DNA from: Comamonadaceae bacterium
Lineage (GTDB): Bacteria; Pseudomonadota; Gammaproteobacteria; Burkholderiales; Burkholderiaceae_C
NCBI GenBank assembly: GCA_947460065.1
Contig: CANHGF010000055.1
Span: 1-10,621, forward strand
Reading direction: 5' to 3'
DNA length: 10,621 bases
Below, piece by piece: positions 1 to 10,498 of this stretch (positions within the stretch are counted from its first letter, which is position 1; every line of letters starts with the position of its first letter). The notes below the pieces were generated by a model. The model was not told where the DNA came from, searched no databases, and worked only from the letters and a program-made list of their open reading frames with translations. A program made the translations under genes and the position numbers.

Positions 1-696
1 ATCGTCGGCCATCTCGAGCGCGGTGCCAAGCGCGTCATCGTGGCGGCGCCGGTGAAGACCGGGGGTGTCCTCAATGTGGTGGTCGGGGTCAACGAGCACC
101 AGTACGACCCGAGCAAGGACCGCATCGTCACGGCTGCGTCGTGCACCACCAACTGCTTGGCGCCGGTGGTCAAGGTCGTGCATGAAAACCTGGGCATACG
201 GCACGGGCAGATCACCACCATCCATGACCCGACCAACACCAATGTGGTGGTCGATGCGCTGCACAAAGACCTGCGCCGCGCCCGCAGCGCGATGATGAGC
301 CTGGCGCCCACCACCACCGGCAGTGCCACTGCGATTGCGCTGATTTACCCCGAACTCAAGGGCAAACTCAATGGCCACGCGGTTCGCGCGCCCGTGCTCA
401 ACGCCTCGCTGACCGATTGCGTTTTTGAGCTGCAACGCCCGACCACCGCCGAGGAAGTAAACGCCCTGTTCAAGCAGGCCGCGGCCGGGCCGCTGGCGGG
501 CATCCTAGGCTACGAGGAGCGACCCCTGGTCAGCGCCGACTATGCGCGCGACACCCGCAGCGCCATCGTCGACGCGCCCTCGACCTTGGTGACCGACGGT
601 ACGCTGCTCAAGGTCTATGCTTGGTACGACAATGAGATGGGCTATGCCTGTCGCATGGTCGATCTGGCCTGCCACCTGGAGCGTGCCGGCCTTTGA
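1..696 (+). CDS. gap: ArsJ-associated glyceraldehyde-3-phosphate dehydrogenase, 3' part
   Basis: The reading frame is open from the first base, so the gene is cut at its 5' end. The 231 residues seen are the catalytic domain; compared with a family length near 335, roughly 100 residues (the NAD-binding Rossmann part) are missing. The active-site cysteine lies in SCTTNCLAP (codon 142-144) and the catalytic histidine in [10 protein letters not shown] (codon 223-225). The C-terminal [15 protein letters not shown] is the usual GAPDH end. The HDPTNTN segment and KDLRRARS fit the GAPDH paralogues that accompany arsJ rather than the housekeeping enzyme, an assignment that leans on the arsJ gene 46 bp downstream. 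In that system the enzyme uses glyceraldehyde 3-phosphate and arsenate to make 1-arseno-3-phosphoglycerate in the cytoplasm, which ArsJ exports. The promoter and any arsR/arsC would lie upstream of the window. A glycolytic role in addition is possible. Confidence 0.9.
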
Positions 697-743
697 TGGA
701 AGCTCAGCGCGAGCTCGTAAGCTCCTTGCGCGGTCCCTTTTGA
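696..743 (+). other. 15-codon mini-ORF bridging gap and arsJ
   Basis: An ATG at 696 overlaps the gap stop codon (TGATG at 694-698). Its frame runs 15 codons ([15 protein letters not shown]) and ends in a TGA at 741-743 that shares its last base with the arsJ ATG (TGATG at 741-745). No ribosome binding site is visible before arsJ. The mini-ORF could carry terminating ribosomes from gap to arsJ by re-initiation. It may equally be chance; the peptide itself resembles nothing I know. A 5-bp hairpin (GAGCT, 4-nt loop, AGCTC, 711-724) lies inside it. Confidence 0.25.
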
Positions 744-1966
744 TGCAGTCTGCAGTTCGTCATTACGCCATCGTCACATCGGCCTACTGGGGCTTTACCC
801 TGACCGATGGCGCCTTGCGCATGCTGGTGCTGCTGCACTTTTACAAGCTGGGTTATTCGGCCATCACCTTGGCCTTCTTGTTTCTGCTTTATGAGGCGGC
901 CGGCATTGTGGCCAATCTGTTGGGCGGCTGGCTGGCGGCGCGTCACGGCATTACCCGCATGCTGGTGGTGGGGCTGAGCACACAGATCGTCGGCTTTATC
1001 GTGCTGTCGGCGCTGCAGCCTGGCTGGAGCGCGGCCATGTCGGTGGCTTGGGTGGTGTTGGCTCAGGGTATATGCGGCGTGGCCAAGGACCTGACCAAGA
1101 CCGCCAGCAAGTCGGCCATCAAGCTCACCCAGGCGGCCGCTCAGGAGCAGGGCAGTGGCCAGCTTTTCAAATGGGTGGCCTGGTTCACCGGCAGCAAGAA
1201 CGCGATGAAGGGTCTGGGCTTTTTCCTGGGCGGTCTGCTGCTGCAGACCCTGGGCTTTCAAGGTGCCTTGTGGTCTATGGCTGCATTACTCAGCCTGGTG
1301 CTTGCGGGCGTGCTGTTGAGTCTGCCGCGCCTGATGGGCAAGGCCCGTGCATCGCGCTCGGCGCGTGAACTGTTTGCCAAAGGCCCGGGCATCAACACCC
1401 TGGCTGCCGCTCGGGTTGTGCTCTTCGGCGCGCGCGATGTCTGGTTTGTGGTGAGTCTGCCCGTTTTTTTATACGCCGCCGGCTGGACCTTCACCATGGT
1501 GGGCTCCTTCCTGGCGGCTTGGACCGTAGGCTATGGCTTGGTGCAGGCGCTGGCGCCGCGCTGGGTCAAACGCAGCGCCGACGGCCTGAGCACCGAGGTG
1601 CCGGCTGCCAGGACCTGGTCTGCGGCGCTGGCGGTGGTGCCGGCGGCCATGGCCTTGGCCCTGAGCCTGCACTGGGGCCCAGCCACCGCCGTAGTGGTGG
1701 GCGGCCTGGTCTTGTTTGGTTTTGCTTTTGCGGTCAATTCTTCGGTGCATTCCTACCTCATCTTGGCCTATGCCGGCAGCGAGAAGGCCGCCGAGGATGT
1801 GGGCTTTTATTACGCGGCCAATGCGCTGGGCCGTTTTTCAGGCACCTTGCTGTCGGGCTTGCTCTACCAGTGGGGCGGTCTGCTCTACGCCCTCATCGGC
1901 TCGGCGCTGATGCTCGCTGTCTGCGCCTGGCTGACCTGGCTGCTGCCCGTCAAACGAAGTTCCTGA
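743..1966 (+). CDS. arsJ: ArsJ, 1-arseno-3-phosphoglycerate efflux permease (MFS)
   Basis: A 407-residue hydrophobic protein of the major facilitator type with about 11-12 predicted membrane segments in the inner membrane. The N-terminus (VTSAYWGFTLTDGALRMLVL, then LHFYKLGYS) is the characteristic ArsJ opening, and AKDLTKTASKSAIKL near residue 120 is also typical. ArsJ exports the unstable 1-arseno-3-phosphoglycerate made by the partner GAPDH; outside the cell it falls apart to arsenate and 3-phosphoglycerate, giving net arsenate resistance. The frame is open back to 617, but that stretch overlaps gap and does not resemble protein. I chose ATG 743 because the family homology begins there and because it overlaps a stop codon (TGATG) that could couple translation; TTG 740 is an alternative. 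No clear Shine-Dalgarno sequence is seen. It follows gap by 46 bp, so the two are almost certainly co-transcribed. Length matches the family. Confidence 0.92.
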   Translation: MQSAVRHYAIVTSAYWGFTLTDGALRMLVLLHFYKLGYSAITLAFLFLLYEAAGIVANLLGGWLAARHGITRMLVVGLSTQIVGFIVLSALQPGWSAAMSVAWVVLAQGICGVAKDLTKTASKSAIKLTQAAAQEQGSGQLFKWVAWFTGSKNAMKGLGFFLGGLLLQTLGFQGALWSMAALLSLVLAGVLLSLPRLMGKARASRSARELFAKGPGINTLAAARVVLFGARDVWFVVSLPVFLYAAGWTFTMVGSFLAAWTVGYGLVQALAPRWVKRSADGLSTEVPAARTWSAALAVVPAAMALALSLHWGPATAVVVGGLVLFGFAFAVNSSVHSYLILAYAGSEKAAEDVGFYYAANALGRFSGTLLSGLLYQWGGLLYALIGSALMLAVCAWLTWLLPVKRSS

Positions 1967-3182: not shown

Positions 3183-4394
3183 TCATCTTTTGGGTCTGGG
3201 TTCAGGCAGCGCCAGCAAAGCGCCCAGGCAGATCAGCCCCAGGGCCGTACTCAGCCACAACGCCTGGCCGCCCCAGTGGTCCAACGCCACGGCAAAAGCC
3301 AGCGGTGCCAGCGCCTGCGCAAACCGGGCCGGAACCATCAACAGGCCTTGGCGCAAGGCATAGCCTTGAGCGCCAAAAAGGACCAGGGGCAACACCCCTT
3401 TGGCAATGGTCAGCACGCCGTTGCCGACGCCGTGCAGCAGCGCGAACAATGCGCCGGCCGGCGCGCCGGCGAGCATGAACAGTGCTGCGCCCAGGGGATG
3501 CATCGCACCGGCCAGTCGGGCCGATAGCAGCGGGTGCTGGTGCCGCAACACGGTGTACTCCAGCAGGCGGCCGGCCACTTGGGCCGGGCCTATCAGGCTG
3601 CCCAGCAGCAGCGCTGTGGCCAGATCTATGCCCTGTACCTGCAGCAAGCGGGGCAGATGAGCGGCCATGGCGGTGCTGATGAACCAGGTCAGCGCAAAGA
3701 TGAGGGCCAGCAGCATGGCAGCCCGCTGTTGTTGAGCGGCGCTGAGTTCCGGCTTCAGTTCGATGATCCGCTCGGGGCTGTGAGCCGCGCTTGCAGATTC
3801 CTGTGCCACTGATTCAGGGGCTGTCTGCTGTGCCTGAGGCTTACGCAAAAAACCGTACAGCGGCAGGTTGATCAGCAGGTGCACCGCCGCCCATGCAAGA
3901 CAGGCCTCGCGCCAGCCCATATTGATCTCAAGCCAGGCCGATGCCGGCCAGGCCACCGTGCTGGCCAGACCACCGAGCAGCGTGATGCCGGTGATCGGCC
4001 CGCGTGCATCGCGCCCGTAAAACTGCACCGCAGCCGCGAACGCGCCCTCGTAAAGGCCGGCGGCCATGCCCGCGCCGATCAGGCTCCAGGCGGCAAACAG
4101 CTGTAGCGCGCCCTGCGCCTGCGACAGCAGCGCTAGCGCCGCGGCCAGCAAGCCGCTGGCGAACATCAGCACCGCCCGCCCGCCGAACTTGTCCGATGCC
4201 CAGCCGGCAGCCGGGCCGAGCAGGGCTGAGACGATCAGAGCCCAGGAAAAAGCGGCGAAGACCATGCCGTTGCTTATGCCCAGATCGCGCGCCATCGGCA
4301 GGGCCAGCATGGCCGGCAGGTAGTAGGTCGAGCCCCAGGCCAGCAACTGGGCCAGTCCCAGCAGGATGACGTTGCGGTGGGGGGAGGTGGGCAT
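3183..4394 (-). CDS. MFS permease, substrate unknown
   Basis: A 403-residue inner-membrane protein with about 12 hydrophobic segments, divided by a hydrophilic loop around residues 205-235 (rich in Gln, Ala, Ser and Glu) as expected between the two six-helix halves of a major facilitator. Visible family features are LGLAQLLAWGSTYYLPAMLA at the N-terminus, GWASDKFGGRAVLMF (the loop 2-3 motif A region: D-x-x-G-G-R) and GVGNGVLTIAKGVLPLVLFG in the second half. The frame is open to a TTG at 4454, but the ATG at 4394 is preferred because conserved sequence starts just after it. No strong ribosome binding site is visible. It converges on dusA and diverges from the Pho-type promoter at 4470; those direct repeats face the other way, so they should not drive it. 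Because of the nearby gap-arsJ pair, an arsenic-related role (ArsK-like permeases are also MFS) is conceivable but only a guess. Confidence 0.85.
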   Translation of the reverse strand: MPTSPHRNVILLGLAQLLAWGSTYYLPAMLALPMARDLGISNGMVFAAFSWALIVSALLGPAAGWASDKFGGRAVLMFASGLLAAALALLSQAQGALQLFAAWSLIGAGMAAGLYEGAFAAAVQFYGRDARGPITGITLLGGLASTVAWPASAWLEINMGWREACLAWAAVHLLINLPLYGFLRKPQAQQTAPESVAQESASAAHSPERIIELKPELSAAQQQRAAMLLALIFALTWFISTAMAAHLPRLLQVQGIDLATALLLGSLIGPAQVAGRLLEYTVLRHQHPLLSARLAGAMHPLGAALFMLAGAPAGALFALLHGVGNGVLTIAKGVLPLVLFGAQGYALRQGLLMVPARFAQALAPLAFAVALDHWGGQALWLSTALGLICLGALLALPEPRPKR

Positions 4395-4469: not shown

Positions 4470-4525
4470 CTGTCATAAAACTGCCTTGAAATTGACATGC
4501 AGCTGTCGCTGCCGAACCGAACAAT
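4470..4525 (+). promoter_or_regulatory. Double Pho box and -10 (PhoB-type promoter) upstream of the small ORF/olsB-like gene
   Basis: Four 7-bp units lie in the same orientation with an exact 11-bp period: CTGTCAT (4470), CTGCCTT (4481), TTGACAT (4492) and CTGTCGC (4503). The first is followed by AAAA, as in the classical Pho box. Ten bases after the last unit is AACAAT (4520-4525), 4/6 to TATAAT. PhoB promoters have this design: two or more Pho boxes replace the -35 and the -10 follows about 10 bp later. Transcription would start near 4532 and go rightward. The PhoB assignment is inference from pattern. Confidence 0.8.
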
Positions 4526-4531
4526 CCATGC

Positions 4532-4786
4532 ATGGATGCACAACACCCTCCACTCTTGACTGCCTCGAGTGTGTCGCCTGCGAGCGAGCGCATCGGTGCA
4601 GCCGCCCCCCTTTGCTCCCTCAAACAGGCCAGCCTGGTGATCCTGCAACGCACCGCGACTTACCTGGCCAGCACCCCAGGCGGCTTGCGCTTTGTTGGCA
4701 GCTCGCGCGAGGGGCTCAAGGCCTTGCAAGCGCTGGCCGGCGGCACGCTGTCCTCAACGAACCTGACCTCCCCACAGAATCCATGA
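4532..4786 (+). CDS. Small hypothetical protein, translationally coupled to the olsB-like gene
   Basis: An 84-residue frame whose TGA (4784-4786) overlaps the ATG of the next gene (4783-4785) as ATGA, a classical coupling arrangement. From about residue 31 the sequence looks like real protein (KQASLVILQRTATYLAST, then GGLRFVGSSREGLKALQALA), with G/C-rich third positions like the neighbouring genes; the first 30 residues are less convincing. I recognise no domain; no signal peptide or membrane segment is evident. The predicted transcription start (about 4532, from the -10 at 4520-4525) falls on its ATG, so either the mRNA is leaderless or translation begins at a later codon such as GTG 4571. 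The other reading frames here give Cys/Pro/Arg-rich translations that look like shadows. It may be a small partner of the acyltransferase or a leader peptide that couples translation; function unknown. Confidence 0.5.
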   Translation: MDAQHPPLLTASSVSPASERIGAAAPLCSLKQASLVILQRTATYLASTPGGLRFVGSSREGLKALQALAGGTLSSTNLTSPQNP

Positions 4787-5622
4787 ACGAACTGCTCAGT
4801 CCCGCCTCAACCCTGTCGTCCATTCATGTCCCCAGCCAGGCCGCTCACCGCCCAGCCCTTGCTCAGGGTGCGCTCGCCCCGCTGGCTGCGCGCTGCATCA
4901 AGGTCAGTTGGGCGCGCCATTTGGATGAGGTCCGGCAGGCCCAGCGCCTGCGCTATCAGGTTTTTGCCGATGAAATGGGCGCTCGTCTGAGCGGCCCGCT
5001 GGCCGGCCATGACATCGATCTGTTCGATGACTATTGCGAGCATCTGCTGGTGCGCGACAGCGACAGCAACGCAGTCATCGGCACATACCGGGTGCTCACC
5101 CCCGCGCAGGCCGCGCGAGTGGGCAGCTTTTACGCCGACCTGGAGTTTGACCTGACCCGGCTGCGCGATCTGCGCAGCCGCATGGTGGAACTGGGCCGCA
5201 GCTGTGTACATGCCGAGCACAGGCATGGCGGGGTGATTCTGGCCTTGTGGGGCGCTCTGACCCAGTTTATGCTGCGCAATCAGCTCGATGTGATGATAGG
5301 TTGCGCCAGCATCCCGATGCAGCATCAGGGCCTGGCCGCAGGCCAGGCTGCAGCGAGCATCTGGCGGCAGGTTCGGGCCACATCCCTGGCGCCGCTGGAC
5401 TGCCAGGTGCTGCCGCGCTTGCCGCTACCGGTACACCGTTTTGACGACAGCCAGGACGTGGAGCCGCCGGCGCTGATCAGGGGCTACCTGCGCCTGGGAG
5501 CCAAGGTGCTGGGCCCTCCGGCCTGGGACCCGGATTTCAATGCCGCCGATCTGCCCATGATGATGCGCACCCAGGACCTGCCGTCCCGCTACCGCCGACA
5601 TTTTGCAACCGAATTGTCATGA
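4783..5622 (+). CDS. olsB: OlsB-like GNAT N-acyltransferase (ornithine lipid synthesis type)
   Basis: A 279-residue protein of the GNAT-fold family that contains OlsB, the L-ornithine N-alpha-(3-hydroxyacyl)transferase. Conserved blocks in order are RLRYQVFADEMGARL (55-69), DIDLFDDYCEHLLV (77-90), VIGTYRVL (98-105), FYADLEFDL (116-124), VELGRSCVHAEHR (135-147) and LDVMIGCASIP (168-178). OlsB moves a 3-hydroxyacyl group from acyl carrier protein to ornithine, the first step to phosphorus-free ornithine lipids that can replace phospholipids. The substrate here is inferred; some relatives act on other amino acids or amines, and no olsA-type second acyltransferase is in the window. The frame is open upstream to 4486, but that part is not protein-like; ATG 4783 is chosen for the ATGA overlap with the preceding small ORF. 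No ribosome binding site is evident, which fits coupling. The Pho-type promoter at 4470-4525 agrees with induction by phosphate starvation. The last two codons and stop lie in the Pho box of ppk. Confidence 0.8.
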   Translation: MNELLSPASTLSSIHVPSQAAHRPALAQGALAPLAARCIKVSWARHLDEVRQAQRLRYQVFADEMGARLSGPLAGHDIDLFDDYCEHLLVRDSDSNAVIGTYRVLTPAQAARVGSFYADLEFDLTRLRDLRSRMVELGRSCVHAEHRHGGVILALWGALTQFMLRNQLDVMIGCASIPMQHQGLAAGQAAASIWRQVRATSLAPLDCQVLPRLPLPVHRFDDSQDVEPPALIRGYLRLGAKVLGPPAWDPDFNAADLPMMMRTQDLPSRYRRHFATELS

Positions 5623-5647
5623 GACGGTCACATTAAGCGACTAGATT
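5614..5647 (+). promoter_or_regulatory. Pho box and -10 upstream of ppk, overlapping the olsB-like stop codon
   Basis: TTGTCAT (5614-5620) and CGGTCAC (5625-5631) are two CTGTCAT-like units spaced by 11 bp. Ten bases later is TAGATT (5642-5647), 4/6 to TATAAT. The layout is identical to that of the other two Pho-type promoters in the window. The first unit consists of the last two sense codons of the preceding gene (TTG TCA) plus the T of its TGA stop. Predicted start of transcription is near 5654. Assignment to PhoB is inference. Confidence 0.7.
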
Positions 5648-5683
5648 CAAGGCAACAAAAGCTCCAGGCTTGTGACGCATCTC

Positions 5684-7795
5684 ATGAATTCAGCATCGTC
5701 GCTCAAGAAGTCCGCCGGGCCCGCCGGGCTCGATGCTGGCTCGCATCCTGCCCCGGTGGCACTGCTCGATCGCGACGGCAGTTTGCTCGCCTTTAATGAA
5801 CGGGTGCTGGCCATGGTCACGCGCGAGGACGTGCCCTTGCTCGAGCGGCTGCGCTACCTTTGCATTGTTTCTTCCAACCTGGATGAGTTTTTTGAGGTCC
5901 GCATGGCGCCGCACCTGCAGGCCTCGCGCGCTGGCCATGGCGGCTTGCCGATCTTTGAACAGATCTCGGCCGCAGCGCATGCCCTGGTGGAGCGTCAGTA
6001 CGCGCTTTACAACGACGTACTGACCCCACTGTTTCAGCGCAGCGGTATTGAAATCGTGGCGCATGGTGAGCGCAATGCCGAGCAGCGTAGTTGGGTGCAG
6101 TCGTACTTTCGGCGCGAGGTGCGGCCCTTGCTGGTGCCAGTCAGTCTGGATCCTTCGCACCCCTTTCCGATGGTGGCTAACAAGTCGCTCAATTTCATCG
6201 TTCGTCTGCAGGGCAAGGATGCGTTCGGCCGTCACAACGAGGTGGCCATCGTCAAGGTGCCGAGGGTGCTGCCGCGCATCATCGCGTTGCCCGATCGCCT
6301 GTGCAGCAAGGGCCGCTTGTTCGTGTCTTTGTCGAGTGTGATTCGGGCCCATTTGCACGAGCTCTTTGCGGGCCGCGAGGTGCTTCATTTTTCCCAGTTC
6401 CGCGTCACTCGAAATTCGGACCTGGCGGTGCAGGAGGCTGATGTGGCCGATCTGAGGTCGGCCCTGCGTGCTGGCCTGGAGCATCGGCACTTTGGCGAGG
6501 CGGTGAGGCTGGAGGTGTCTTCGGGCTGTTCGCAGTTTCTCGTCGACTTTTTGTTGCAGCAGTTCGACTTGCCCGTGCAGTCGGTATACCGGGTCCATGG
6601 ACCGGTGAACCTCAACCGGCTCACCCAATTGATCGATTTGGTCGCCGACCCCGCCCTGATGTGGCCCACCTATCAGGCCAGCTACCCCCGCCAGTTGGTT
6701 CCGGGGCAGGACCTGTTCGAGCGTTTGAAGCAGGGCGACGTGTGCCTGCATCAGCCGTTTGAAAGTTTTGATGCGGTCATCGACTTCCTGCGACAGGCGG
6801 TGGAAGACCCCCAGGTGCTGGCGATACGGCAGACGGTGTACCGCACGGGCTCCGATTCCGAAATGATGAAGCTGCTGCGTGAGGCGGTACGCCGTGGCAA
6901 AGAAGTCATGGTGGTGGTCGAACTCAAGGCTCGCTTTGACGAGGAGGCCAATATCAATTGGGCTGAGATGCTCGAATCGATTGGAGCCCAGGTGGTCTAT
7001 GGCGTCTTGGGCTTGAAGACCCATGCCAAGATGCTGTTGGTGACGCGCAGGGAAGGGCGCTCCATCAAGCGCTATGTGCACCTGTCGACCGGCAATTACA
7101 ACCCCCGTACCGCTCGCCTTTATACCGATGTGAGCTATCTGTCGGCCGATCCTGTGCTGACCCAGGATGTGGAACATCTTTTTTATCATCTGGGCAGCCA
7201 AAGTCGCCTGCCCAAGCTCAATCGCCTGCTGGTGGCCCCGCATGCCTTGCACGGCAGCCTCATGGAGAAGATCGAGGCTCTGGCCCGATCTGCCGCTCAA
7301 GGCGGGCAGGCGCGCATCGTGGCCAAGATGAATTCCTTGACCGATGAAAAGCTGATTCGGGCATTGATGGGGGCGGGTCGGCAAGGTGTGCAGATTGATT
7401 TGATCGTGCGGGGCGCCTGCATGTTGCCGGCGCAGGTGCCTGGGCAAACCGACAATATTCGCGTTCGCTCAGTGGTGGGCCGCTTTTTAGAGCATTCACG
7501 CTTGTTTTACTTCAGTGACGGCCAGGAGGACAGCTTGTTCCTCTCGAGCGCCGACTGGATGAACCGCAACATGTTCGGTCGCGTCGAGCTGGCCTGGCCG
7601 GTGACAGATCCGTCGATACGCCAGCGCTTGATCGACGAATGTTTGGTGGCTTACCTCCATGACAGTCGCGACGCCTGGCAGCTTCAGCCCGATGGCAGCT
7701 ACCTGCCGGCCCAGCCTGCGCCGCGCCAGCGCCGACACAGCGCTCAATTGGCGCTGATGGCGCGCTACGGCGTGACCGGCAGCAAGAACCGGTAA
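5684..7795 (+). CDS. ppk: Polyphosphate kinase 1
   Basis: PPK1 polymerises the gamma-phosphate of ATP into inorganic polyphosphate, reversibly, through a phosphohistidine intermediate. The 703-residue protein has the usual four-part layout: the N domain (RLRYLCIVSSNLDEFFEVRM, 55-74), the head domain (LLVPVSLDPSHPFPMVANKS), and two C-terminal phospholipase-D-like domains. The phosphorylated histidine is in GLKTHAKMLL (codon 7022-7024, residue 447) and the second active-site histidine is in FLEHSRLFYF (codon 7493-7495, residue 604). HLSTGNYNPRTARLYTD and ELKARFDEEANI are further PPK1 signatures. Full length for the family. A GTG at 5672 in the same frame adds four residues and lies 3 nt after AGG; ATG 5684 is chosen but the choice is open. 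The gene has its own Pho-type promoter (5614-5647) and is followed after 2 bp by sixA. Confidence 0.97.
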   Translation: MNSASSLKKSAGPAGLDAGSHPAPVALLDRDGSLLAFNERVLAMVTREDVPLLERLRYLCIVSSNLDEFFEVRMAPHLQASRAGHGGLPIFEQISAAAHALVERQYALYNDVLTPLFQRSGIEIVAHGERNAEQRSWVQSYFRREVRPLLVPVSLDPSHPFPMVANKSLNFIVRLQGKDAFGRHNEVAIVKVPRVLPRIIALPDRLCSKGRLFVSLSSVIRAHLHELFAGREVLHFSQFRVTRNSDLAVQEADVADLRSALRAGLEHRHFGEAVRLEVSSGCSQFLVDFLLQQFDLPVQSVYRVHGPVNLNRLTQLIDLVADPALMWPTYQASYPRQLVPGQDLFERLKQGDVCLHQPFESFDAVIDFLRQAVEDPQVLAIRQTVYRTGSDSEMMKLLREAVRRGKEVMVVVELKARFDEEANINWAEMLESIGAQVVYGVLGLKTHAKMLLVTRREGRSIKRYVHLSTGNYNPRTARLYTDVSYLSADPVLTQDVEHLFYHLGSQSRLPKLNRLLVAPHALHGSLMEKIEALARSAAQGGQARIVAKMNSLTDEKLIRALMGAGRQGVQIDLIVRGACMLPAQVPGQTDNIRVRSVVGRFLEHSRLFYFSDGQEDSLFLSSADWMNRNMFGRVELAWPVTDPSIRQRLIDECLVAYLHDSRDAWQLQPDGSYLPAQPAPRQRRHSAQLALMARYGVTGSKNR

Positions 7796-7797
7796 AT

Positions 7798-8280
7798 ATG
7801 GACCTGATTTTGTGGCGCCACGCCGATGCGCAGGAGGCCGATCCGGTCGACGACCGGCTGGAGATGGTGCGCCGCGACCTGGCCCGCAGCTTGACCGGTC
7901 GCGGGCAAAAGCATGCCGCCCGCATGGCCGCATGGCTGGACCATCAGATGAGCGAGTCCACCCGAATTTTGGTCAGCCCGGCCCTGCGCTGCGAGCAGAC
8001 TGCGCTCAATCTGGGACGAAAATTCAAGATCTGCGAGCAGCTAGCGCCCGATCGCAGCGCTGATGACTTGTTGCAGGCCGCTCAGTGGCCCGACAGCAAG
8101 CACCCTGTTTTGGTGGTGGGTCACCAGCCCACGCTGGGCCGGGTCGCGGCACGCCTGCTGGGTTTGCCGCAGCTGGACTTGTCGGTGCGCAAAGGCGGCG
8201 TTTGGTGGCTGCGCTCGCGCGAGCGCGACGGCCAAAGCCAGACGGTGCTGTTGGCCGTTCACTCGCCCGATCTGCGCTAG
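7798..8280 (+). CDS. sixA: SixA-type phosphohistidine phosphatase
   Basis: A 160-residue member of the histidine phosphatase superfamily, cytoplasmic. The N-terminal LWRHADA carries the nucleophilic His8 with Arg7; SPALRCEQTA (60-69) supplies the conserved Arg64; VVGHQPTLG supplies the second catalytic histidine, His109. Length and the RHA (rather than RHG) motif match SixA. Characterised SixA proteins remove phosphate from histidine on signalling or phosphotransfer proteins (in E. coli, ArcB and the nitrogen-PTS protein NPr have been reported). ATG 7798 is 2 bp after the ppk stop, so the two are surely one transcript and probably translationally coupled; no separate ribosome binding site stands out. 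Its target here is unknown. The pairing with ppk, an enzyme that works through phosphohistidine, is suggestive but unproven. Confidence 0.9.
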   Translation: MDLILWRHADAQEADPVDDRLEMVRRDLARSLTGRGQKHAARMAAWLDHQMSESTRILVSPALRCEQTALNLGRKFKICEQLAPDRSADDLLQAAQWPDSKHPVLVVGHQPTLGRVAARLLGLPQLDLSVRKGGVWWLRSRERDGQSQTVLLAVHSPDLR

Positions 8281-8340
8281 GCGCCTCCTGCGGATTCAAG
8301 CGGGCGGACGCAGCTGCCCTGGGCACCCCAGCCTTGCGCC

Positions 8341-8772
8341 TTAGCCTTTGGGACGCCCGGTTTTGATGGTCGGCACGGCGGTCAAGGCCTTGCCCAGGGC
8401 CGTATCCCCAAGACTGGCCAGCAGCATCAGCCCAGCGCGCAGCAATTCGCTTTTCTTGGGCGTCATGGCCATCTTGGCGGCGCGCTGCTTGAGCGTTTCG
8501 ATCGCCATGTATTCGGACTTGGGGATGGTGAAGCTGTCGCGCACCAGCTTGGGCTTTTTGACTTTTTCGATTTTCTCAGCTTGGCTGGCTACTTTCTCAG
8601 CAGGCAGTGCAGGGCCGCTGGAGGGCGCTGGATTTGCGGCGGCCACAGGTGCCGGCTGAGCCCTGGTCCTTGTAGCGGGCTTGCGCTTTGCAGCAGGCTT
8701 GGCCGTCCCTGCAACGGTCTTGCGCGCTGCGGTGCGGGTGGAGGTGGTGGTTTTTCGGGCGCTGGTGGCCAT
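8341..8772 (-). CDS. Histone-H1-like basic tail with ribbon-helix-helix-like C-terminal domain; unrecognised function
   Basis: A 143-residue protein in two parts. Residues 1-45 are an Ala/Lys/Arg/Thr tail (SARKTTTSTRTAARK, then AAKRKPATRTRAQ) like histone H1 or the AlgP-type tails, followed by a Pro/Ala linker. Residues 78-122 (VRDSFTIPKSEYMAIETLKQ, then KKSELLRAGLMLLASL) read as a short strand, a helix, a turn and a helix, which fits a ribbon-helix-helix fold. The protein ends in TIKTGRPKG, where GRP preceded by basic residues resembles an AT-hook-like minor-groove contact. I infer DNA binding, possibly nucleoid-associated or autoregulatory; no specific family function is known to me. The frame is open to 8829, but AGGAG six bases before ATG 8772 and the palindrome at 8788-8814 fix the start. 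It lies 157 bp after ppx on the same strand and converges on sixA with 60 bp between. Confidence 0.8.
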   Translation of the reverse strand: MATSARKTTTSTRTAARKTVAGTAKPAAKRKPATRTRAQPAPVAAANPAPSSGPALPAEKVASQAEKIEKVKKPKLVRDSFTIPKSEYMAIETLKQRAAKMAMTPKKSELLRAGLMLLASLGDTALGKALTAVPTIKTGRPKG

Positions 8773-8778
8773 GTCAAT

Positions 8779-8783
8779 CTCCT
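8779..8783 (-). promoter_or_regulatory. Ribosome binding site that decides the start of the H1-like gene
   Basis: On the minus strand AGGAG lies 6 nt before ATG 8772. It is the clearest Shine-Dalgarno sequence in the window and argues against the upstream start at 8829. Confidence 0.75.
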
Positions 8784-8787
8784 GGTT

Positions 8788-8814
8788 AAACGGTATAAAC
8801 AGTTTATATCGTTT
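8788..8814 (-). promoter_or_regulatory. 27-bp near-perfect palindrome, probable operator
   Basis: On the plus strand the arms are AAACGGTATAAAC (8788-8800) and GTTTATATCGTTT (8802-8814) around a single A; 12 of 13 positions are complementary. It is AT-rich in a GC-rich region and lies 15 bp before the start codon of the H1-like gene. On the minus strand it contains TATAAA, a possible -10, so a protein bound here would block or shape transcription of that gene. The simplest reading is an operator for the gene's own product or another dimeric regulator. A hairpin in the mRNA leader is an alternative if transcription starts further upstream. Confidence 0.65.
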
Positions 8815-8929
8815 TCCGGAGCGAGGCAAATCCCGTCCAATGCCGGCGCCACAGTGTCATGCTTTTGAAGGTGATAGCCGTGCCCAAGTGGCGGCGCCGC
8901 CTATGAACAAGCCCGCAGTCGCCCAGCCT

Positions 8930-10411
8930 TCAGTCGCTGCGCAAAGTCCAGGGCCAGGGCGTCCTGCTCCACGCTGCGCATTCTTCCGTCAGCAGGTGCA
9001 TGGATTGGGGGTAGCGCAAGGCCCAGTCACTGGCTACCGACAGTCGCAGCTCGCGCGCCTCTTGGTGCAAGTGGATGCTCGCCAGCTCTGGGTCTCGATG
9101 AGCATGGCAGAGGATGACGGCCAGCCGCAGGCTCAAGAGCTGGCGCATGAAGACCGGGTCTGAAAACCAGTGTTCCATCTTGCGCAGCTTGCCGCGGTGG
9201 CCGAGCACAAGTTGACTGAGCCGGTGAAGTTCTTCGAGCGAAAAGCCCGGCGCATCGGCGTGGTCGAGCAAATAGGCGCCGTGTTTGTGGTACTCCTGAT
9301 GGGAGACATGGCTGCCGATGTAGTGCAACTGCGCCGCCCAGTCCAGCTTGCGCTTTAGCCGGTGGAGATCGTGGTCTGGCGGCGCCTGCCCTAGAAGCGC
9401 TTGCGCGGTTCGGCTGACCCGCGCTGCCTGACGTACATCGACCCGATACTTGAGCATCAGGTGTTCAACCGTCCTGGCCCGCAGATCGGTTTGGTCGTCC
9501 TGGCGATCAAGCAGGTCGTAGAGGACGCCGTGGCGCAGCGCGCCCTCGGCTGACTTGATTTCGGTGATATCCAACAAAGAAAAGATCGCCCGCAGCACAC
9601 TCACCCCGCCGCCAATGACCGCTCGCCGATCCTCCTTGAGGCCTTCGAGCTTGATGCGGTCCGCGCTTTGGGCGCGCAGCAGTTTGTCGAGCAGCCAGTC
9701 CAGCGCGTCCTGGCTGATCACGCCCGCCTCCCAGCCACTGGCCTGCAGTGCGTCGGCCACCGCGTTGACGGTCCCGGAGGATCCATAGGCACTGTCCCAA
9801 TGCAGCCGAGAAAACGCGGGCAGAGCCTCTTCAAGCACCGCCTTGGCGGCCACCTCGGCGCGCTCAAAGGCCTGCTCGGTGAGCAGGCCGTCGGGAAAGA
9901 ATTTGTGCGACCAGCTGACGCTGCCCACCCGCCAAGACTCCAGGGTCTGGGCCTGCAGGTGCTGACCCAGGATCATTTCGGTCGAGCGTCCGCCAATGTC
10001 GATCACCAGGCGGCGCTCATGACTGTAGGGCAACAAATGCGCTACCCCGAGATAGATCAGGCGGGCTTCCTCGCGTCCGGGAATCACATCGATCGCAAAG
10101 CCCAAGATCTTGCGGGCCTGATCCAGGAATTCGTCCCGGTTTCGGGCTTCTCGCAAGGTTTGGGTGGCCACCGCTCGCACCTGGTGGCGCTTGAAGCCCG
10201 ACAGGCGCTCGGCAAAGCGTGCCAGGCAGTCCCAGCCGCGCTGCATGGCCTGGGGAGTGAGGTTTCGCTGCGCATCGAGCTCGCCGCCTTGCCGCACCGT
10301 TTCCTTGAGGTAGTCGGAGCGACGGATCAGGCCATGGTCGAGCTGACCGATTTCAAGTCTGAAGCTGTTTGAGCCGAGGTCTACCGCGGCCAGCCGGGTT
10401 CCGTCTTGCAT
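8930..10411 (-). CDS. ppx: Exopolyphosphatase, Ppx/GppA family
   Basis: The enzyme removes terminal phosphates from polyphosphate and, in some members, hydrolyses pppGpp to ppGpp. The 493-residue protein has the actin-like ATPase fold: LAAVDLGSNSFRLEIG (7-22, first phosphate-binding loop), GREEARLIYLGVAH (112-125) with the catalytic glutamate of the family at Glu114/115, VIDIGGRSTEMILG (136-149, second phosphate-binding loop) and AYGSSGTVNAVADAL. The C-terminal third (RLKRKLDWAAQLHYIGSHVS, then HQEYHKHGAYLLDHA) is the HD-like helical domain of the long Ppx type, about the length of E. coli Ppx. Context favours Ppx over GppA: ppk is nearby and a Pho-type promoter precedes it. ATG 10411 has no visible ribosome binding site; the next in-frame codons upstream soon reach a stop. 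It is on the opposite strand to ppk, so synthesis and breakdown are controlled from separate promoters. Confidence 0.95.
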   Translation of the reverse strand: MQDGTRLAAVDLGSNSFRLEIGQLDHGLIRRSDYLKETVRQGGELDAQRNLTPQAMQRGWDCLARFAERLSGFKRHQVRAVATQTLREARNRDEFLDQARKILGFAIDVIPGREEARLIYLGVAHLLPYSHERRLVIDIGGRSTEMILGQHLQAQTLESWRVGSVSWSHKFFPDGLLTEQAFERAEVAAKAVLEEALPAFSRLHWDSAYGSSGTVNAVADALQASGWEAGVISQDALDWLLDKLLRAQSADRIKLEGLKEDRRAVIGGGVSVLRAIFSLLDITEIKSAEGALRHGVLYDLLDRQDDQTDLRARTVEHLMLKYRVDVRQAARVSRTAQALLGQAPPDHDLHRLKRKLDWAAQLHYIGSHVSHQEYHKHGAYLLDHADAPGFSLEELHRLSQLVLGHRGKLRKMEHWFSDPVFMRQLLSLRLAVILCHAHRDPELASIHLHQEARELRLSVASDWALRYPQSMHLLTEECAAWSRTPWPWTLRSD

Positions 10412-10464
10412 GGATGAGGGGTCTAAGGGCGGTGAACGCGGGCCCTGAAGGGATCAAGTGAGCG

Positions 10465-10498
10465 ATCATATGACTTGGCCATGACAGAAATATGACGA
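10465..10498 (-). promoter_or_regulatory. Pho box and -10 upstream of ppx
   Basis: Read on the minus strand, TCGTCAT (10498-10492), ATTT, CTGTCAT (10487-10481), then exactly 10 bp, then TATGAT (10470-10465), 5/6 to TATAAT. A third unit, AAGTCAT (10476-10470), continues the 11-bp period and overlaps the -10. Predicted start of transcription is near 10458, giving a leader of about 47 nt before the ppx ATG. Of the three Pho-type promoters here this has the best -10 match. PhoB binding is inferred from pattern. Confidence 0.8.

What the first reader, a model, noticed from the sequence alone, without database searches (positions are those of the whole stretch)
4470..10498. Three promoters with the same Pho-box geometry define a phosphate-starvation locus
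Boxes at 4470-4509, 5614-5631 and 10481-10498 all use 7-bp CTGTCAT-like units with an 11-bp period, and in each case a -10-like hexamer follows after exactly 10 bp. Chance agreement in three places, each directly before a gene of phosphate economy (OlsB-like, ppk, ppx), is unlikely. It implies that PhoB switches on phosphorus-free lipid synthesis and both arms of polyphosphate turnover at once. Making and degrading polyphosphate under the same signal would be a cycle that needs post-translational control.
Basis: partly seen in the sequence, partly recalled or inferred. Interest (0 to 1): 0.75.

Follow-up and report, generated by a model that had tools for sequence, protein, structure and literature searches.

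The report
Phosphate-starvation switches, including arsenate export
Three DNA switches that the phosphate-starvation regulator PhoB should bind are real and sit before genes for phosphorus-free lipid and polyphosphate metabolism; the same kind of switch also stands before arsenate-export genes next door and in many related bacteria, which suggests that phosphate-starved cells prepare for arsenate before it harms them.

Summary
A PhoB matrix built from 27 pstS promoters of relatives ranks the three reported places as the window's five best positions; the ppx and ppk boxes (19.8, 16.7) exceed all 387,182 background positions of the same genome (maximum 11.9). The olsB box is a four-unit array. 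A -10-like hexamer follows each box after exactly 10 bp. This box-spacer-hexamer signature matches exactly at four places in the assembly: ppk, ppx, pstS, gapdh-arsJ. Best explanation: an ordinary class II PhoB locus. Relatives weaken two points: ppx boxes in 5 of 19, and the nearest relative lacks the ppk box. Beyond the finding, the fourth site precedes the arsenate-efflux pair gapdh-arsJ, just left of the window. Across the family 18 of 32 such promoters score >=12 and 24 of 32 >=8 (0.32 expected from shuffles); in other families of the class 1 of 21 scores >=12. The papers searched showed no report of this. The olsB box precedes a conserved small protein gene of unknown function. Expression and binding were not testable.

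The parts
4470..4509 (+). Four-unit PhoB box array (11-bp period) of the small-protein/olsB operon
   Evidence: Four units in register score 17.9 vs background maximum -6.9; three-unit score >=12 in 32 of 43 relatives' olsB upstream regions, 30 of 43 also with a NANNNT hexamer 10 bp after one of the units, usually the fourth (one artefact row L076 left out)
4520..4525 (+). -10-like hexamer AACAAT, exactly 10 bp after the array
4532..4786 (+). Conserved small protein (84 aa), first gene of the operon, ATGA overlap with olsB; no Pfam or NCBIfam match
   Evidence: HMM of its core (trained on 21 relatives and the window) hits 27 of 44 relatives' olsB loci; no family
4783..5622 (+). OlsB-like ornithine N-acyltransferase (GNAT, 279 aa)
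   Evidence: Pfam Acetyltransf_5 119.6 bits, over cut-off; NCBIfam OlsB models 155.5 and 139.1 bits over nearly their whole length but below cut-offs 350 and 320; OlsA-like gene next to olsB in L080, itself below cut-off, 132.8 of 300 bits
5614..5631 (+). PhoB box of ppk, overlapping the olsB stop codon
   Evidence: score 16.7, 0 of 387,182 background positions as high
5642..5647 (+). -10-like hexamer TAGATT
   Evidence: NANNNT at the same spacing in 21 of 22 relatives' ppk promoters with a box within 250 bp
5672..7795 (+). ppk1, polyphosphate kinase (GTG 5672 or ATG 5684)
   Evidence: TIGR03705 855 bits, cut-off 466
7798..8280 (+). sixA-like phosphohistidine phosphatase, downstream of ppk
   Evidence: TIGR00249 76.5 bits, cut-off 74.5; 0 of 25 relatives have a box >=12 before sixA
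8930..10411 (-). ppx (Ppx/GppA family exopolyphosphatase)
   Evidence: TIGR03706 311.9 bits, cut-off 307; Ppx-GppA Pfam
10465..10470 (-). -10-like hexamer TATGAT of ppx
10481..10498 (-). PhoB box of ppx
   Evidence: score 19.8, best in the window, 0 of 387,182 background positions as high
1..696 (+). ArsJ-associated GAPDH, 3' part; its 5' part and its three-unit PhoB box (CCGTCAT-N4-CTGTCAC-N4-CTGTCAT, 10 bp, CAAAAT) are on contig C406 (L116:2730-2774), which by its match to relative G013 ends about 62 bp left of the window
   Evidence: (box score 24.0)
743..1966 (+). arsJ, efflux permease for 1-arseno-3-phosphoglycerate
   Evidence: NF033734 514.3 bits, cut-off 400

Best explanation
The three sites are genuine class II PhoB promoters: phosphorylated PhoB binds direct 7-bp repeats in place of a -35 element and recruits RNA polymerase to a -10 hexamer 10 bp downstream. 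When phosphate runs low, PhoR-PhoB (genes beside the pst operon) should induce the small-protein/OlsB operon, ppk-sixA, ppx, pstSCAB-phoU-phoB-phoR and, from just left of the window, gapdh-arsJ. OlsB would start ornithine-lipid synthesis and spare phosphate. Ppk and Ppx would let polyphosphate be built and drawn down. GAPDH-ArsJ would convert arsenate that enters with phosphate through Pst to 1-arseno-3-phosphoglycerate and export it. Shown: sequence match, spacing, gene families, conservation. Inferred: PhoB binding, induction and physiology.
For: The pstS-trained matrix puts the three places at the top of the window, ppx and ppk boxes above all 387,182 background positions. Four exact genome-wide matches to box-10 bp-hexamer: ppk, ppx, pstS, gapdh-arsJ. 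NANNNT at exactly 10 bp, not used in the matrix, in 27 of 27 pstS, 21 of 22 ppk and 23 of 23 gapdh promoters with a box (29 ppk and 30 gapdh promoters were examined). olsB array >=12 in 32 of 43 relatives. Control genes with a box >=12 in their own direction: sixA 0 of 25, dusA 0 of 5, arsJ 0 of 5, MFS 0 of 8, orf162 0 of 4, phoB 0 of 2; pstS 7 of 7. PhoB and PhoR over NCBIfam cut-offs.
Against: No expression, footprint or 5'-end data. Nearest relative (L069/G013) lacks the ppk box and has a degenerate gapdh box, 0.4. ppx box in only 5 of 19 relatives, three of those five with the hexamer. At up to one mismatch the composite pattern is enriched in G000 (14 vs 3 for the reversed control) but hardly in G013 (12 vs 10). 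The assembly is 79% complete in 421 contigs.
Confidence: 0.88

Rival explanations
1. The boxes are real but bound by another OmpR/PhoB-type regulator with a similar repeat.
For: The genome has 24 matches to the PhoB model.
Against: The matrix was trained on pstS promoters, the classical PhoB target, and only one of the 24 is over the model's cut-off; it lies with phoR beside pstSCAB-phoU.
Confidence: 0.05
2. Only some sites work: ppk and olsB are PhoB-controlled, while the ppx box is lineage-specific or idle, or belongs to the crowded divergent ppx-pstS region.
For: ppx boxes in 5 of 19 relatives, while 7 of 19 ppx upstream regions have a box >=12 in the opposite direction; ppx start lies 190-706 bp from the pstS start in 7 relatives.
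Against: The window's ppx box is the strongest in the window (19.8), points toward ppx and has TATGAT at exactly 10 bp.
Confidence: 0.15
3. The repeats are chance similarities in promoters of another type.
For: Single 7-mers are at chance frequency.
Against: Matrix, spacing and conservation results.
Confidence: 0.02

Closest known systems
PhoB regulon with class II Pho-box promoters (E. coli type; recalled)
   Same: Direct 7-bp repeats with 11-bp period replacing the -35, -10 element 10 bp downstream, pstS as target
   Different: The predicted regulon includes gapdh-arsJ and an unknown small protein; the olsB array has four units
Predicted Pho boxes before olsB in Burkholderia sensu lato (PMC7814305, passages read)
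   Same: Putative Pho box upstream of olsB homologues in 21 of 43 genomes, in all 43 with a second matrix (authors' data not shown)
   Different: Here the array precedes a small protein gene (27 of 44 relatives' loci), and in many relatives olsB sits beside ppk
PhoB control of arsenite oxidase aioBA in Halomonas sp. HAL1 (PMC4563254, abstract and outline read)
   Same: PhoB binds a Pho box before an arsenic gene, with effect at low phosphate
   Different: Arsenite oxidation there; arsenate export as 1-arseno-3-phosphoglycerate here
P-limitation response of Nodularia (PMC9846622, passages read)
   Same: ArsJ-associated GAPDH (log2 1.6 and 2.4) and ArsJ (0.3 and 1.2) in two comparisons under phosphate limitation; ppk rises late
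   Different: Cyanobacterium; the authors could not find a conserved P-box there
Arsenic island of Halomonas GFAJ-1 (PMC5930303, 12 of 23 matching passages read)
   Same: arsJ and gapdh homologues in an island that also holds a pst operon
   Different: The passages read mention no Pho box or PhoB control

Membership tests
Class II PhoB promoter | Two or more TGTCA-type 7-bp direct repeats, 11-bp period | tested here: met
Class II PhoB promoter | -10 hexamer 10 bp downstream of the last repeat | tested here: met
Class II PhoB promoter | Conserved in relatives at the same gene | tested here: inconclusive
   olsB 32 of 43, ppk 23 of 29, ppx 5 of 19
Class II PhoB promoter | PhoB binding and phosphate response | not testable with these tools
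   needs footprint and RNA data
OlsB ornithine N-acyltransferase | Match over curated cut-off | tested here: not met
   155.5 of 350 and 139.1 of 320 bits; described as OlsB-like only
OlsB ornithine N-acyltransferase | OlsA-like partner in the genome | tested here: inconclusive
   partial OlsA-like frame at a contig edge, 57% over 105 aa; matches of roughly 235-263 of 302 residues in 8 of 8 relatives searched, one with a stop inside; the query itself is below the OlsA cut-off
PPK1 | TIGR03705 over cut-off | tested here: met
   855 vs 466 bits
Ppx/GppA | TIGR03706 over cut-off | tested here: met
   311.9 vs 307 bits
Ppx/GppA | Exopolyphosphatase rather than pppGpp hydrolase activity | not testable with these tools
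   needs enzyme assay; GppA model 377 bits, below its cut-off 624
GAPDH-ArsJ arsenate efflux | ArsJ over cut-off next to ArsJ-type GAPDH | tested here: met
   ArsJ 514 vs 400 bits; the best GAPDH model is the ArsJ-associated one, 420 of 450 bits for a partial gene

The most novel reading that the evidence does not exclude
In this bacterial family the arsenate-export pair gapdh-arsJ is a conserved direct PhoB target, controlled by phosphate hunger rather than by arsenic alone. Cells that open the high-affinity Pst gate, which admits arsenate, would switch on arsenate export at the same moment, a pre-emptive defence whether or not the genes lie near the pho locus.
Probability: 0.7. Interest if true: 0.65.

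Novelty: new member of a known kind. Interest (0 to 1): 0.5.

Why it matters
It supports the view that lipid replacement, polyphosphate turnover and phosphate uptake are written as one PhoB locus in this lineage. It also gives a testable account of how phosphate-starved bacteria avoid arsenate taken in by the same transporter: a PhoB site before the arsenate-export genes in most members of the family examined that carry them. That would link phosphorus limitation to arsenic cycling by a specific promoter, and it points to an unknown small protein whose gene precedes olsB in the same operon.

Tried and rejected
The sigma-70 scan of the window found no promoter-like site (0 found, 1.9 expected), as expected for activator-dependent promoters without a -35. 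No Rfam match at gathering scores. A third unit after the ppx box (10470-10487 pair, score 12.8) lies in the spacer and overlaps the -10 hexamer by one base; it was not counted as a separate box. C89:7907, one of the six genome-wide hits with at most two mismatches, lies inside a coding frame and was not counted as a promoter. The MFS gene 3183-4394 as a divergent PhoB target: no box >=12 in its own direction in any of 8 relatives, 3 of 8 in the opposite direction, that of olsB; it is below the ArsK cut-off (220.9 of 400). Pho control of OlsA: no box >=12 before any of 12 scorable OlsA-like genes; a thirteenth, L259, is cut by a contig end. Neighbouring ArsR genes as alternative regulators of gapdh-arsJ: HTH_5 matches lie next to arsJ in many of the 33 genomes searched (the listing is cut and I did not count them), so control by ArsR as well is not excluded. 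Other families of the class: 1 of 21 scorable gapdh promoters >=12 and 3 of 21 >=8 (0.5 expected from dinucleotide shuffles), none of the three with the hexamer (30 loci fetched from 59 genomes with a match; 9 dropped, 6 without GAPDH and 3 partial); the matrix may be less sensitive there.

Rows dropped before counts: L144 and L145 left out of the training set on purpose and L157 for lack of a match, 4 of 36 (L071, L174, L181, L186: partial GAPDH or too little upstream), L076 (locus begins inside olsB); L088 and L089 as duplicates of L069 and L070. Some loci look nearly identical (for example L075/L077 and L102/L107), so counts are not fully independent. The matrix was recomputed with slightly different base frequencies in later scripts, so scores differ by a few tenths or more between calls (for example olsB of L069).
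Full report
What is in the window. The window is contig C55 of a 2.73 Mb, 421-contig assembly, 79% complete. Genes left to right: GAPDH of the ArsJ-associated type (3' part), arsJ, dusA, an MFS gene on the minus strand, a small ORF, an OlsB-like gene, ppk1, sixA, an unnamed ORF on the minus strand, and ppx on the minus strand.

The observation. All three sites exist as described, with 7-bp units, an 11-bp period and a -10-like hexamer exactly 10 bp after the last unit. Single units are at chance frequency, so the test has to use the arrangement. I built an 18-bp matrix from 27 pstS promoters of same-genus genomes (loci, upstream regions, matrix), leaving out the window's genome and its nearest relative. 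The window's five best positions are all at the three sites. The ppx and ppk boxes (19.8, 16.7) exceed every one of 387,182 positions in 193,761 bp of the same genome (maximum 11.9). The olsB pairs score 12.7 and 11.1, the latter matched by 2 background positions; as four units in register the olsB array scores 17.9 against a background maximum of -6.9.

Genome-wide rank. The plain two-unit pattern with up to three mismatches gives 104 hits against 31 for the reversed control; six hits have at most two mismatches, three of them in this window, two at one place on contig C406 and one inside a coding frame on C89. The fuller pattern with the 10-bp spacer and hexamer matches exactly at four places in the assembly: ppk, ppx, pstS and C406. 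I designed that pattern after seeing the sites, so it measures rarity and is not a blind prediction. With up to one mismatch it gives 14 hits against 3 for the reversed control in this genome, but 12 against 10 in the nearest relative G013, which has 2 exact matches.

The fourth site. C406 ends inside the 5' part of the same GAPDH gene whose 3' part begins the window; both match one stretch of relative G013 with about 62 bp between them. Its three-unit box begins 71 bp before the GAPDH start codon and is followed after 10 bp by CAAAAT. Left of it are arsS (TIGR04167, 451 bits, cut-off 300) and an MTA phosphorylase gene. So the locus reads arsenosugar genes, [PhoB] gapdh-arsJ, dusA, MFS, [PhoB] small protein-olsB, [PhoB] ppk-sixA, ppx [PhoB], and in relative L069 (the same stretch of G013) it continues as pstSCAB-phoU-phoB. 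In the window's genome the pst-pho genes are on contig C135, which ends at the pstS promoter; that C135 lies right of the window is inferred from G013.

Conservation of the three sites. Upstream of olsB, three-unit arrays score >=12 in 32 of 43 relatives, 30 of 43 with a NANNNT hexamer 10 bp after one of the units. In 14 of the 32 the four units have the order GTCA, GCCA, GACA, GTCA; the window and L069 show a close variant of that order. Before ppk, 23 of 29 relatives score >=12 and 21 of 29 >=15, 22 of 29 at >=12 within 250 bp; the nearest relative, L069, does not (1.4) although the region aligns. Before ppx only 5 of 19 do, three of the five with the hexamer. Control genes in the same loci give 0 of 25 (sixA), 0 of 5 (dusA), 0 of 5 (arsJ), 0 of 4 (orf162), 0 of 2 (phoB) and 0 of 8 (MFS, own direction), while pstS gives 7 of 7. 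The hexamer was not part of the matrix, yet NANNNT occurs at offset 10 in 27 of 27 pstS, 21 of 22 ppk and 23 of 23 gapdh promoters with a box; at the other offsets from 3 to 18 it occurs in at most 19%, 14% and 9% of them, except offset 18 for gapdh (61%).

The arsenate pair across the family. ArsJ is present in 32 of 250 genomes of the family, own genome included. Of 32 gapdh promoters that could be scored (27 from that survey, four from relatives' olsB loci and the window genome's own), 18 score >=12 and 24 >=8; mononucleotide shuffles predict 0.32 at >=8. In a second count of survey stretches only, 23 of 30 have a box >=8 within 150 bp, all 23 with the hexamer at 10 bp. In 31 stretches totalling 560,406 bp, 30 positions score >=12 and 19 of them, in 18 stretches, lie 60-120 bp before the gapdh start on its strand. 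Only 2 of those 18 stretches also show olsB, ppk or pst genes, so the box does not depend on lying near the pho locus. Against this: 8 of 32 promoters stay below 8, the nearest relative's copy is degenerate (0.4), and outside the family 1 of 21 scorable class-level promoters scores >=12. The trait therefore looks like one of this family.

The small protein. The olsB box is followed first by an 84-aa ORF whose stop overlaps the olsB start (ATGA). Its core, of the form LRILRCTA..MASSPGGLRF..GTRPWL, is found in 27 of 44 relatives' olsB loci by an HMM trained on 21 of them and the window (a seven-row alignment is). It has no Pfam or NCBIfam match. A wider search could not be made.

Mechanism. Class II activation by PhoB accounts for all sites. 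Predicted products at low phosphate: the OlsB-like acyltransferase, with a partial OlsA-like frame elsewhere in the assembly; Ppk and Ppx; Pst; and GAPDH-ArsJ. OlsA-like genes of relatives have no box. GAPDH-ArsJ converts arsenate to 1-arseno-3-phosphoglycerate and exports it, as described for Pseudomonas and inferred for Halomonas (PMC5930303, passages read). Because Pst uptake can bring arsenate in with phosphate, induction by phosphate hunger would act before arsenic is sensed. This step is inference.

Known and new. Pho boxes before olsB are predicted in Burkholderia (PMC7814305, passages). PhoB control of an arsenic gene is known for aioBA (PMC4563254, abstract and outline). GAPDH-ArsJ induction by phosphate limitation is reported in a cyanobacterium without a recognised box (PMC9846622, passages). 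PhoB control of ppk and ppx in other bacteria is recalled; two searches for it listed only papers that I did not open. Searches for arsJ with phosphate starvation, PhoB and pstS, for arsenate with PhoB and Pho box, and broader ones of which I saw 20 of 957 and 12 of 188 papers listed showed no report of PhoB sites before gapdh-arsJ in titles, abstract starts or the passages read (PMC9846622, PMC5930303, PMC7005997). Most listed papers were not opened, and the library lacks most subscription papers, so absence from print is not established.

Changes after checking: the gap between C406 and the window is about 62 bp, and the OlsA row is now inconclusive.

Noticed in passing
L116:2730-2774 (contig C406, left neighbour of the window): Three-unit PhoB box with exact 10-bp spacing before gapdh-arsJ; a box >=8 is present in 24 of 32 gapdh promoters scored.
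   Followed up: yes
window 4532-4786: Conserved small protein gene between the Pho box and olsB, without known family; hit in 27 of 44 relatives' olsB loci.
   Followed up: partly
window 4520-4534: The ATG of the small ORF lies only 6 bp after the -10-like hexamer, so its transcript may be leaderless; in some relatives the distance seems longer, but I did not measure it.
   Followed up: no
L116:1-2469: arsS (arsenosugar radical SAM protein) and an MTA phosphorylase gene left of gapdh-arsJ: arsenosugar-type genes beside the phosphate locus.
   Followed up: partly
L093, L099, L189, L190, L197, L207: gapdh-arsJ found inside or next to pho, ppk or olsB genes in different orders, suggesting repeated linkage.
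   Followed up: partly
family arsJ loci: ArsR-type (HTH_5) match directly beside arsJ in many genomes, suggesting possible double control by PhoB and ArsR; the window has dusA after arsJ instead.
   Followed up: partly
window 8341-8772, minus strand: Lysine- and alanine-rich ORF between sixA and ppx, present in many syntenic relatives, no Pfam or NCBIfam match.
   Followed up: no
G013:C13:207914-207947 (L260): Exact match to the composite PhoB pattern in the nearest relative at a place that I did not examine.
   Followed up: no
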